Of a DNA stretch of 64,000 bases, positions 4,922 to 37,149 are shown piece after piece; position 1 is the stretch's first letter, and the number at the start of each line of letters is the position of its first letter. The notes below the pieces were generated by a model that was not told the origin of the DNA, did no database searches, and saw only the letters and a program-made list of their open reading frames with translations. Made by a program: the position numbers and the translations under genes. Origin of the DNA: Candidatus Altimarinota bacterium (GTDB lineage: Bacteria > Patescibacteriota > Gracilibacteria > BD1-5 > UBA2023); the NCBI GenBank assembly GCA_028689065.1, contig JAQTWX010000001.1, positions 1-64,000 on the forward strand. The letters run 5' to 3'.

Positions 4922-4959
4922 AGTTTTATTTGAAATACTTATCTTCTCAATTTTTCTCT

Positions 4960-7491
4960 ATGAAAACAAAAAATAATATTTGTCATTCTGAGCGTAGCGA
5001 AGAATCTACCGCTATAAATCTCAAAAAAGGAAGATGCTGAAATAAATTCAGCATGACAAAATATAATGGTTTCACCCTCGTGGAACTCATCGTCGTCATT
5101 AGTATACTTGCTATTCTTGGTACTATTGCTTTCGTCAATCTCCAGGGTTTTTCAGGTTCTGCGAGAGATAGTGATAGGATAACAACATTAGCCAATCTAC
5201 AAAAATGACTGAACTTATTTCAAATAAAAGTATGAAGTTATCCAACACCAGATAATCAAACAGGAACTTGAATAGTGAATTGAATAGTACTTTCATATGT
5301 ATGAATAATATGAGATAATATTTCAAGAATAATAAACTATAGCCAAATACCAACAGACCCACTATCACAAACAAACTATGTATATGGAACAGATGTAAAT
5401 AGAACAAACTACCAAATAGCAACAACACTAGAAAATCAAATAGCATATACTCCAGTAATAGAAACTACATATGCAAATGCATGATATAAAGCAAAAGTAG
5501 TGTGAAACTATAATTGATTACTAAAAGTATGAACAGGATTATATAACCTACCAAGTCTAATATTTATATGAACATGAATAATATCAATAGATACATTCAC
5601 AGGATTCATAATAGATAAATGAACAAATCTTCCATACAAACTAAACACAACAGATCCAGAAAATAAAGAAACGATTACAAAACAACTACAACAATTAAAT
5701 CAAACAACAGCAACATTAGTATTAACATGAGTATCAATCCCAAACTATACAAGTAGTGAATTCAAATGATTACTAGAAATACCACCAGGACTATTATCAT
5801 TATGAATAACAAACAAAGATAAACTATGACAAGCAATTTACTGAGATAATTATTTTACAACAATAAATAATGAAATAACATGTGCAGATAAACAAACCCC
5901 AACAGCAGAACAATACTTTACCTTTGATGCACTAACCCAAACAATAACAAACTATGATGCTACATGATGAACAGATATAGTAATTCCTTGTAAAATATGA
6001 TGAGTAACTGTGAAAACACTTTGAATTCAATCTTTCAAGAATAAATGATTAACAAGTGTAATAATTCCAGATAGCGTTATAACAATAGTAAATCAAGCTT
6101 TTATGAGTAATTCATTAACTGAGGTAATAATCCCAAATGGTGTTACAACTATAATGGGAGCAGCTTTTCATACCAACTCATTAACAAGTGTGGTTATTCC
6201 AAGTAATATAATAAGTATTGCAAATAATACTTTTTTTAATAATCCACTAACAAGTATTACAAACTATGATGGATTTACTTCAAGTGAATATTTCTATACA
6301 GCTACTTGAGCTGGTATAGAGATAAATGGTTATATATGAACTGCAACTAATCTAACAATACCAAGTACTATTAATGGAAAAAGTGTAGTGAGTTTATGAG
6401 TTAATGCTTTTAATAATAAATGATTAACAAATGTTGTAATTCCAACCAGCATCATATCTATATGAGCTTATGCTTTTAATAATAATCCAATAACAAATAT
6501 AACAAACTATGATTGAGTAGTTTCAACAGAATATATTTATGGGCCAAGTTGAGCTGGTATAGAGATAATTAATTATATATGAACTGCAACGGATCTAACA
6601 ATACCAAGTACTATTAATGGAAAAAGTGTAGTGAGTTTATGAATGTATTCTTTTTATAATAAGTGATTAACTAGTGTTGCAATTCCAAATACTGTTACGA
6701 ATATTTGAAATTCAGCCTTTTATGGGGATTTGCTAACGAGTGTAGTAATTCCAGATAGTGTTACAAATATTTGAAATTATGCTTTTTTTACTAATCAGTT
6801 ATCAAGTATAACTATTTGAAATAGTGTTACAGATATATGATGGTATGCCTTTTACAGTAATAAATTAACAAGTGTAGTAATTCCAAATAGTGTAATAAAT
6901 ATATGAAAAGAGGCTTTTTATAATAATCTTATTTCAAGCTTAACTCTGGGAAATAGTATTAAAACTATAGAAATATGAGCCTTTTATGTTAATTCACTAA
7001 CCAATGTGGCAATTCCAAATAGCATTACAAGTATATGAGGTTATGCCTTTCATAATAATCCACTAACAAGTGTAACAAACTATGATTGAGTAGTTTCAAC
7101 AGAATATGTCTATGGTCCGAGTTGAAATGGTATAGAAATAAGTAGTTATATGTGAGCTGCTACAAATCTCACTATACCAGGTAGTATTAATGGGAAGAAT
7201 GTGATAAGTTTATGAGTTAATGCCTTTGGTGGTAAATGATTAACAAGTGTGGTAATCCCAATGGGTATTACCACAATATGATTAAGTGCTTTTTATAATA
7301 ATGGATTAACAGCTATTACAATACCGAGTAGTGTTACAAGTATATGAACTAATGCTTTTAGTAATCAAAATACTTCAGTTTGAAATTGAACAGTATATTG
7401 ACCAGCTAGTTGATATGTATTTGATACTTATGCTAATAATACAAATACCGAGTTTGATAAAGTAAAATTACCAAATTATGTGGGGCAATAA
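4960..7491 (+). CDS. Prepilin-like protein with BspA-type leucine-rich repeats
   Basis: The 843-codon frame contains about fifty TGA codons and no TAA or TAG before 7489. Near residue 38 is a type IV prepilin cleavage and methylation motif followed by a hydrophobic helix (NGFTLVELIVVISILAILGT). From about residue 350 the protein consists of BspA/LRR_5 repeats of the type LTSVVIPNSV...IG..AF.NN, interrupted three times by an insert with the core ITNYDG. BspA repeats occur in surface adhesins. ATG 5053, just before the motif, is an alternative start, but 4960 fits the shared promoter and TCTATGAAAAC start context. A palindromic repeat lies inside the leader. Strikingly, UGA is the main glycine codon here, unlike in the housekeeping genes. 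Confidence 0.82.
4981..5058. repeat. Palindromic repeat of the HSERSEES-encoding type inside a coding leader
   Basis: The element is bounded by TGTCATTCTGA and TCAGCATGACA, which are imperfect inverted ends. It contains an inner perfect hairpin TGCTGAA-ATAAA-TTCAGCA at 5035-5053. Its left end translates to CHSERSEES, the signature of a dispersed REP-like repeat seen in many bacterial genomes (recalled from general knowledge). Here it sits in frame within the leader of the prepilin-like gene. I saw no other copy in the window. Confidence 0.7.
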
Positions 7492-15690: not shown

Positions 15691-15774
15691 TATACTTTTC
15701 TCTCTCATTTTTTGCAAAATCCACCAGAAAAGAGTACAATATCAGGAAGTATAACAAAAAACAAAAACAAAAAT

Positions 15775-16776
15775 ATGACGGAAGCTCTCCATACTCCAAG
15801 CACGCCAGAAGTGCGTATATATCCTCCGATGAACGTGGGAAATCTTTTGGCGAAGTACTCGCATCTCGCGAGTACACAACAGGAAGTGGAACTTGCGGAG
15901 AGGCAGACAAGTGAGCGGAATACGTTGAAACATCGTCACCGAGAAGCAGGACAACGAGTCCAACAAGAAACTCATGAGAGACTCAATATCGAGCAGATGA
16001 TCACAAGAGCTCAGGCTCTCCTCTATGAAGCCTTTGGAATCGACCCAAAACTGGATCGAAACAGTGTGTTCGGCAAGTTTACCAAGGGAGGAATCGATGC
16101 GATGATCATGGATAATATCGATTTCGTGAAGGATATCGTCGAGCATGGAATCGGGACGGTCATAGAGGGAATTAAATCACTATTCTCTCTCGAAGGAATT
16201 GAACGGATGCTCAAAGAAACTGGCAAATCCCTGCATGATCTCATATCCGGAGATGCGTATGCCACCGGAAAGGCAGTGGGAGGACTTGGATTCGGAGCGG
16301 TGGGTATGGTGCGAGGAGCGCTGAAATCGGAGATGAAGCATATACTTAAAGAAAAATCGGTCGTACGAGGGGTGAATGCTCTGGTAGAAGAAAAACACAT
16401 CACGCCTCCGAAAATAGGAGAGCTCCTCAGATGATTCGATCCTATGAAACTCAATCCAAAAGAAGCACTTTTCGCCATAGATCAAATCAATGCCCATATG
16501 GATGTCACTGAGCTCATTCATACGACTGGAAGTATACAAAATTTCACACAAAGTCTTAAAAATCTTGCGAAGTACGTGGAAGTAAATACAGAGAAAATAG
16601 GATCATTACGAGGAGAGTATTTACGCTCTATGATAGAACTGCGAAAAAATCTAAAAGATATAATTTTGGATCCAAAAATGACAGTGGATGATGCTCAAGA
16701 CTTAGCTAAATTAAACAAAGATACCCTAGATAAAACTATTTATTATCTCAATCCTCATTTATGACCGCAAAAATAA
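15775..16776 (+). CDS. Hypothetical protein (333 aa), mostly helical
   Basis: No family is recognised. The frame starts at ATG 15775, crosses a UGA near 16432 and a second at 16762 that overlaps the next gene's ATG, and then stops at TAA 16774. Residues 35-75 are a charged coiled-coil-like stretch (QQEVELAERQTSERN). The middle is Gly-rich and amphipathic (GKAVGGLGFGAVGMVRGALK), possibly membrane-associated. It overlaps the following gene by 16 bases, so the two are almost certainly cotranscribed and may act together. Confidence 0.75.
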
Positions 16777-17180
16777 ACACTACTCACGAAAATCAAGGAT
16801 TCTTCCGAGAAGTATGGGATGCTGTGGATACTAAAACTGCCACTTACCTAATCCGTTTTGAAGATGGGGGATTTGAAAAGCTTATTGACCGATGGTGGGA
16901 ATTTTATTTTAAAAAACAAACCGAATATATTAACGAGGAAGAATTTAAAAACTATTTGCGCGAGATGATTGGCATATACATCAGATATATAACAGTCGAA
17001 AAAGATGAACCATTTAATTCAGAAAAATCCGCTAGAATAAAATGGATAAGAGAAACTTATAAAGAACTTCTCTACGAAGAATTACATGGAGATACAACAA
17101 AAAAACAAGAAGCTCTCATCAAACAAGTCGGAAAAAGAGGGATAGTTTTACAGATTTTGGACTGGACACGAGGAAAGTAA
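16761..17180 (+). CDS. Hypothetical protein (139 aa)
   Basis: The compact, soluble, charged protein contains FEKLIDRWWEFYFKKQTEYI and ends ILQILDWTRGK. No family is recognised. Its ATG lies inside the end of the upstream gene, which suggests translational coupling. A hairpin terminator follows eight bases after the stop. Confidence 0.78.
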   Translation: MTAKINTTHENQGFFREVWDAVDTKTATYLIRFEDGGFEKLIDRWWEFYFKKQTEYINEEEFKNYLREMIGIYIRYITVEKDEPFNSEKSARIKWIRETYKELLYEELHGDTTKKQEALIKQVGKRGIVLQILDWTRGK

Positions 17181-36076: not shown

Positions 36077-36110
36077 GAAAGAGCTCGTTCTCAGGAGAAC
36101 GAGCTCTTTC
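36077..36110. repeat. Long perfect inverted repeat in the 318-base gap 35964-36281
   Basis: GAAAGAGCTCGTTCTC and GAGAACGAGCTCTTTC pair over 16 bp with a two-base centre. There is no clean T run. It may be a terminator-like RNA structure or a recombination site. The rest of the gap shows no supported gene, apart from a 12-base copy of a tRNA end at 36138. Confidence 0.6.
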
Positions 36111-36137: not shown

Positions 36138-36149
36138 TTTGGTAACGCT
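36138..36149. repeat. 12-base direct repeat of the tRNA-Glu 3' end
   Basis: TTTGGTAACGCT here equals 37073-37084, which spans the CCA, discriminator and acceptor end of tRNA-Glu(TTC). The two copies bracket a 0.9-kb UGA-rich cassette, as expected for attachment sites. The repeat is short, so chance is possible. Confidence 0.4.
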
Positions 36150-36281
36150 CAGGGGTTGCACCTTCGAACTTTTTCTGAGAGAATAAGGCTTTCATTTTCA
36201 CAATTAGAGTACTTGCTTTGAGTTTATGAATCGATTTAATTGGTGTGAGTTTTCGTCCAGATTTTCCAGATCATTATAACC

Positions 36282-36788
36282 CTATAAAATTCAATCTACC
36301 TTTCAAGAAACTTTTTTTGTTTCATCTTCAACTTCAAAAAATTTACTTGGATTTATAATTATTCATTTATAAATTCAATTATTTTCATTATTATCATCTT
36401 CATTTGTATCTTGATACAATAATCATAATAAATAAAATTTTCAATTAAATTCAAAATATCAAGATGGTTCTAATACTTGTTTTCAATCAATAGTTTCAGA
36501 AGTAAGAGTATTTTTCTTTTTGAATTTCTTTTTCCAATTTTCCATATCTTGGTTTAATTCTTCTAAAGAAGAGTATTCAAACATAAAAATATGTTCTCAA
36601 TAATTATGAAATTTCTTTCATCAAAAATTTATACTTTCTTCTAAAGTATTTTTAAATCTTCATTGTTTTTTAAAAGACCTTGCTATATCATTTAAGAAAG
36701 TTTCACTCACGTTTCAAATATCATTGATTGTAGTAAATCACTTTATTGTATAACTTGAATTTTGTGCTATTAAAACATTATTTGTCAT
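36282..36788 (-). CDS. Hypothetical cassette protein (168 aa), all glycines encoded by UGA
   Basis: The frame is invisible under the standard code because it contains fourteen TGA codons; all fourteen glycines are UGA and no GGN codon is used. It starts MTNNVLIAQNSSYTIKGFTT and ends in KVDGIL before TAG 36282. The middle is basic and helical (LEELNQDMENWKKKFKKKNT); then comes an aromatic, acidic part (GYFEFNGKFYLLGLLYQDTN, DTNEDDNNENN). No family or membrane segment is recognised. It lies two bases behind the kinase-like frame, so the pair is an operon. Confidence 0.65.
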
Positions 36789-36790
36789 AT

Positions 36791-36937
36791 TTATTTTTTA
36801 ATATTTAAATTTGTATTTCAAAAATCTATTATATAAGTAGTTTTTCAATCTCTAGAAAGCATAAAATTTCAACTATGCATGTCCGTGAGAGCTTTCCAGT
36901 TTTCTCATTCCAAATCGAGATCATTGAATTTTGGCAT
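36791..36937 (-). CDS. Short kinase-like fragment with catalytic-loop and DFG motifs
   Basis: The 48-codon frame starts MPKFNDLDLEGENWKALTDM. It then reads DMHSGNFMLSRDG and TTYIIDFGNTN, the order of the catalytic loop (Asp, Asn) and metal-binding DFG of protein-kinase-like and aminoglycoside-phosphotransferase-like enzymes. The whole N-lobe is missing, so it is a remnant, a mini-protein or the end of a gene broken by the TAA about 48 bases upstream. All four glycines are UGA. It precedes the 168-residue gene directly. Confidence 0.5.
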
Positions 36938-37036
36938 TTTTTAATATGGAAAGTTTTAAATTACCGTAATGATAAACATTTCATTAAAAAATCCAAATTT
37001 CATATTTTTAATTCCTCAAATATCACAGAAAAAATA

Positions 37037-37065
37037 AAATAGCCTCACAAAAGTGAGACTATTTT
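37037..37065 (-). terminator. Terminator of the tRNA operon
   Basis: On the minus strand AATAGTCTCAC and GTGAGGCTATT pair (one mismatch) around TTTT and are followed by TTATTTTTT. It lies just downstream of tRNA-Glu(TTC). Confidence 0.7.
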
Positions 37066-37074
37066 TGATTTCTT

Positions 37075-37149
37075 TGGTAACGCTACGGAGAATTGAACTC
37101 CGGCTTACGGGATGAAAACCCGTTGTCCTAACCACTAGACGATAGCGTC
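37075..37149 (-). tRNA. tRNA-Glu(TTC)
   Basis: The acceptor stem GACGCTA/TAGCGTT is closed by one G-U pair. The anticodon loop TTTTCAT carries TTC, the T loop is GTTCAAT and the CCA end is encoded. It is last of four tRNAs on the minus strand. Confidence 0.95.

What the first reader, a model, noticed from the sequence alone, without database searches (positions are those of the whole stretch)
36138..37084. Small UGA-saturated cassette bracketed by copies of a tRNA-Glu end
Two adjacent genes (36282-36788 and 36791-36937) encode all 18 of their glycines by UGA and none by GGN. They lie between tRNA-Glu(TTC) and a second 12-base copy of its 3' end (TTTGGTAACGCT). This is the layout of a small integrated element that itself evolved under code 25, for example from a phage or satellite of this lineage. 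Neither gene is visible with the standard code.
Basis: partly seen in the sequence, partly recalled or inferred. Interest (0 to 1): 0.7.

Follow-up and report, generated by a model that had tools for sequence, protein, structure and literature searches.

The report
Decayed toxin-immunity insertion at tRNA-Glu
A 0.9-kb piece of foreign DNA sits between a tRNA gene and its original terminator in a bacterium that reads UGA as glycine; it looks like the wreck of a larger inserted element, with one intact gene, probably an immunity partner, whose matching toxin-like gene is reduced to its last 31 or so residues.

Summary
The two ORFs encode all 18 glycines by UGA, against 12.5% in the rest of the window. 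The 12-mer AGCGTTACCAAA occurs exactly twice in the 1.04-Mb genome, bracketing 923 bp next to tRNA-Glu(TTC). Two genomes of another genus (G014, G023) show the empty site: there the terminator that in the window lies beyond the second 12-mer directly follows tRNA-Glu. Congener G006 has its own 176-bp version of the layout. So this is an insertion at a tRNA-Glu hotspot. It is not an intact two-gene satellite, and nothing in it is phage-like. The 48-aa 'gene' is a chimera: the first codons of a DNA methyltransferase joined to the last ~31 residues of a kinase-domain protein. The 168-aa gene is intact. Its family (19 of 77 genomes of the order, no congener) lies just downstream of that kinase gene. 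The kinase protein shares its N-terminal ~330 aa with proteins carrying other C-terminal domains and different downstream genes: a polymorphic toxin/immunity layout. UGA saturation reflects an AT-rich Gracilibacteria donor (39-87% UGA-glycine around the homologues). Best reading: an orphan immunity gene in a decayed insertion.

The parts
37075..37149 (-). tRNA-Glu(TTC), the insertion target
   Evidence: ARAGORN
37073..37084 (-). tRNA-side copy of the 12-mer AGCGTTACCAAA (3' end of tRNA-Glu plus two bases)
36138..36149 (-). distal copy of the 12-mer, candidate second attachment site
   Evidence: empty-site comparison
36150..37072 (.). inserted DNA between the two 12-mers, 24% G+C
37036..37065 (-). 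terminator-like hairpin right after tRNA-Glu, shared with G001 and G006; taken as an end of the inserted elements (inference)
36791..36937 (-). 48-aa chimeric ORF: methyltransferase start (about 36881-36937) fused to the C-terminal ~31 residues of a kinase-domain protein
36282..36788 (-). intact 168-aa gene, predicted immunity-type partner of the kinase protein
36078..36109 (.). hairpin homologous to the terminator that directly follows tRNA-Glu at the empty sites; taken as the original terminator
15712..16776 (+). 354-aa protein with the same N-terminal domain family as the kinase proteins (E 2e-31)
16761..17180 (+). 139-aa ORF overlapping its end, candidate partner gene
   Evidence: position only

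Best explanation
The locus is what is left of a horizontally acquired element that inserted between tRNA-Glu(TTC) and its terminator and then lost most of its interior. Shown: an empty site in two genomes of another genus; a unique 12-bp duplication of the tRNA 3' end; UGA use and base composition like that of AT-rich Gracilibacteria; the 48-aa ORF as a fusion of a methyltransferase start and a kinase C-terminus; an intact 168-aa gene whose relatives sit directly behind the kinase gene. Inferred: a tyrosine integrase did the inserting; the kinase protein is a polymorphic-toxin-like effector with the 168-aa protein as its immunity partner; the partner was kept after the toxin was destroyed because it still protects against the same kind of kinase from related cells, or simply has not yet decayed.
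For: Empty-site alignment: the flank after the second 12-mer matches the flank of tRNA-Glu in G014/G023 above all of 1000 shuffles, the flank directly after the window's tRNA-Glu does not. Independent 176-bp case in G006, whose outer flank matches the empty site of G008. 12-mer unique in the genome. 168-aa gene absent from six congeners, present in 19 of 77 genomes of the order. UGA-Gly 18/18 against 12.5%, and 39-87% around the homologues. Chimera: 51 of 56 nt equal to the G003 methyltransferase start, two halves matching two families. Linkage of kinase gene and partner, and loss of the kinase core with the partner kept in four loci. Shared N-terminus with varying C-termini and downstream genes.
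Against: No integrase in the cassette. The duplication is only 12 bp. A misassembly at the chimera cannot be excluded. Toxicity and immunity are untested, the C-terminal matches are weak, and the N-terminal domain has no known secretion role. The proximal hairpin could instead be old tRNA-operon sequence.
Confidence: 0.66

Rival explanations
1. An intact small integrative element or phage satellite of the code-25 lineage: the two genes are its normal cargo and a helper integrase moves it.
For: tRNA-Glu 3'-end duplication and empty sites; Gracilibacteria prophages are dense in in-frame TGA (PMC10746230).
Against: The 48-aa ORF is a chimera of two unrelated genes; no homologue in phage records or viral contigs; no element genes; homologues are chromosomal pairs.
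Confidence: 0.12
2. Same insertion history, but the kinase/168-aa pair is an intracellular system (toxin-antitoxin or phage defence kinase with regulator) rather than a secreted effector with immunity protein.
For: Kinase domains occur in phage defence (weak match to a defence kinase model); the pair lies next to a methyltransferase remnant here and no signal for secretion was identified.
Against: The N-terminal ~330 aa is shared with proteins carrying unrelated C-terminal domains and different downstream genes, which is the layout of polymorphic toxins.
Confidence: 0.18
3. Ordinary chromosomal region of low G+C; the 12-mer is chance and there is no insertion.
For: The repeat is short and no integrase is present.
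Against: Empty-site alignments, uniqueness of the 12-mer, homologues in distant genomes but in no congener.
Confidence: 0.04

Closest known systems
Polymorphic toxin/immunity systems (conserved N-terminus, variable C-terminal toxin domain, cognate downstream immunity gene)
   Same: Shared N-terminal ~330 aa with several C-termini, each followed by a different small gene; partner kept when the toxin core is lost
   Different: No Pfam or NCBIfam N-terminal domain, delivery route unknown, toxicity untested; here only the partner and a toxin tail remain
tRNA-targeted integrative elements and genomic islands (tyrosine integrase, attachment site in a tRNA 3' end)
   Same: Insert between tRNA-Glu and its terminator, duplication of the tRNA 3' end, empty sites, other inserts at the same place in congeners
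   Different: No integrase or mobility gene in the insert; repeat only 12 bp
Code-25 prophages of Gracilibacteria (PMC10746230)
   Same: High in-frame TGA, integrated
   Different: No phage gene here; chromosomal genes of AT-rich Gracilibacteria have the same UGA usage

Membership tests
Polymorphic toxin/immunity system (the gene family behind the cassette) | Conserved N-terminal region joined to different C-terminal domains | tested here: met
   N-terminus in 40 of 77 genomes, several C-termini
Polymorphic toxin/immunity system (the gene family behind the cassette) | C-terminal domains are toxins | tested here: inconclusive
   Kinase domain clear; Tas1 best match E 0.008, ADP-ribosyltransferases E 0.007-0.07; no activity data
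Polymorphic toxin/immunity system (the gene family behind the cassette) | Cognate immunity gene directly downstream | tested here: inconclusive
   Position and linkage met; protective function not testable here
Polymorphic toxin/immunity system (the gene family behind the cassette) | Export or delivery of the toxin | not tested
   No known delivery domain found in Pfam or NCBIfam; no signal-peptide search was run
tRNA-targeted integrative element | Direct repeat of the tRNA 3' end bracketing the insert, and an empty site elsewhere | tested here: met
tRNA-targeted integrative element | Integrase gene in the element | tested here: not met
   Neither ORF is an integrase; PF00589 matches in the genome lie elsewhere. 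Compatible with a decayed remnant, so no membership as a complete element is claimed
Phage or phage satellite | Phage-type genes or homologues in phages | tested here: not met
   PHROGs gives only weak kinase-motif matches and none for the 168-aa protein; no phage records; viral contig pattern hits were chance

The most novel reading that the evidence does not exclude
Gracilibacteria carry an undescribed, lineage-wide polymorphic effector/immunity system with its own N-terminal domain and a kinase among its C-terminal domains. Because its genes are dense in UGA-glycine they can be read through only in code-25 cells, so the reassigned code would act as a firewall that confines this arms race and its gene traffic to the code-25 lineage; the window shows an immunity gene that outlived its toxin after such a transfer.
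Probability: 0.35. Interest if true: 0.72.

Novelty: new member of a known kind. Interest (0 to 1): 0.48.

Why it matters
The cassette is a tractable example of gene transfer inside a recoded lineage, in which UGA density reflects the donor's base composition rather than a phage. It led to a gene family found in about half of the genomes of this order with the layout of polymorphic toxins and no N-terminal counterpart in Pfam or NCBIfam. If activity is confirmed, it would be a candidate weapon set for bacteria thought to depend on other bacteria, and a way to test whether genetic recoding limits the exchange of such genes.

Tried and rejected
Phage origin: tblastn on phages, two degenerate patterns on viral contigs, PHROGs; nothing real. 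Fold of the 168-aa protein: AlphaFold pLDDT 80, but Foldseek gave no significant match; many of the best hits were kinases (E from 0.13 in PDB) and profile-profile comparison with the kinase proteins found no homology, so a 'degenerate kinase lobe' origin is not claimed. O-antigen-ligase-like genes (my reading of their sequence) flank both the window cassette and the G003 methyltransferase, but the two proteins are not detectably similar. The tree of the 168-aa family does not place the window copy with support, so the donor is not named beyond 'AT-rich Gracilibacteria'. Distal repeat as a degenerate tRNA: no tRNA is found there and no shared 8-mer outside the 12-mer.

Full report
Setting and observation. 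The window lies in a 1.04-Mb genome (G000, contig C7) that uses code 25. The confirmed homologues in named contigs come from Patescibacteria MAGs, three of four named Candidatus Gracilibacteria. The ORFs are 22% G+C in a 37% G+C window. The 12-mer AGCGTTACCAAA occurs exactly twice in the genome, both here and in the same orientation.

It is an insertion. The tRNA cluster Gly-Ile-Pro-Glu is found complete in four of six congeners. In G014 and G023, of another genus, tRNA-Glu is followed directly by a terminator that aligns with the one lying beyond the distal 12-mer in the window (scores 38.8 and 37.6, above all 1000 shuffles), whereas the sequence directly after the window's tRNA-Glu does not align with those flanks (p 0.40-0.49). 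The shuffles keep base composition only. Independently, congener G006 has an insert whose bracketing 14-mers lie 176 bp apart and belong to a longer perfect duplication of its tRNA-Glu 3' end; its outer flank aligns with the empty site of G008. G001 has more than 4 kb at the same place, up to the contig end, with an RloB fragment and a KilA-N gene. G000, G001 and G006 share a hairpin right after tRNA-Glu that the empty sites lack; I take it as an end of the inserted elements, by inference. The site is therefore a hotspot.

The 48-aa ORF is a scar. Its residues 1-27 match a DNA methyltransferase of congener G003 (67%, E 9e-9), and its residues 17-45 match a kinase-side fragment in G050 (61%, E 2e-6). 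At DNA level 51 of the first 56 nt equal the start of the G003 methyltransferase gene, and similarity ends there, near window 36881. Beyond it lie the last ~31 codons of a protein whose full-length relatives have about 430-750 aa and a Pkinase/APH-type domain. A methyltransferase of another genome has GACATGAATAGTT where the window has GACATGCATAGTT, so short homology may have guided the deletion (inference). A misassembly cannot be excluded without reads.

The 168-aa gene is intact and has a family. It is found in 19 of 77 genomes of the order, mostly in a sister family, in none of six congeners, and in none of the 379 other genomes of a phylum-wide draw. UGA makes up 39-87% of the glycine codons around the homologues, with the highest values in the most AT-rich loci, so UGA saturation is explained by the donor's base composition without a phage.

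What the pair is. In the kinase-type loci of this family that I inspected and that were not cut by a contig end, a gene of the 168-aa type lies directly behind the kinase gene; in the most divergent pairs the match is weak. The N-terminal ~330 aa of the kinase proteins recurs, with the kinase domain or without it: 40 of 77 genomes match some part of the profile, and many matches cover only the N-terminus, followed by quite different C-termini and downstream genes. One C-terminus has Tas1 as best solved-structure match (E 0.008); another has Lmo0066 and C3 ADP-ribosyltransferases as its only matches (E 0.007 to 0.07; that Lmo0066 is an ADP-ribosyltransferase is my own knowledge). These are weak matches, but the layout as a whole is that of polymorphic toxins. 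Four loci, this one included, have lost the kinase catalytic core yet keep an intact partner; the reverse was not seen. That asymmetry is what an immunity gene would show, but the numbers are small and were not tested statistically.

Mechanism. Most likely an element carrying a methyltransferase and a kinase/partner pair inserted at tRNA-Glu through an integrase, then lost its interior by a deletion that joined the methyltransferase start to the kinase end, leaving the partner gene. The genome does hold tyrosine recombinases, two of them next to tRNA-Thr, so the means are at hand. Insertion and scar are shown; integrase action, toxicity and immunity are inferred.

Novelty. tRNA-anchored islands and orphan immunity genes are known kinds (own knowledge). 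The gene family is, as far as the libraries here show, undescribed. A paper search for 'polymorphic toxin' with 'Patescibacteria' returned four papers, none evidently on this family from title and start of abstract; TGA-dense Gracilibacteria prophages are described in PMC10746230.

Noticed in passing
window 15712-17180 (+): A second member of the same N-terminal family, with a different C-terminus and an overlapping 139-aa downstream ORF; possibly a complete effector/partner pair in this genome.
   Followed up: partly
window 4930-7491 (+): An 853-aa BspA-type leucine-rich-repeat protein with 53 of 84 glycines by UGA and 29% G+C, a second UGA-rich gene and transfer candidate in the window.
   Followed up: partly
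L191 13821-16040 (G000 C7 about 169.8-172.0 kb): Two tyrosine recombinase genes beside tRNA-Thr(GGT), whose first 26 bases are repeated 127 bp upstream; neighbours include a weak replication-relaxation match and an AAA_13 protein, so this may be an integrative element.
   Followed up: partly
L033 (G006) about 7265-7440: A 176-bp-spaced insert between perfect duplicates of the tRNA-Glu 3' end that also contains an inverted copy of the tRNA T-arm sequence.
   Followed up: partly
L100-L108: A methyltransferase family, mostly starting MPKFNDLDL, with a different downstream gene in most genomes, as if it moves with varying restriction or defence genes.
   Followed up: no
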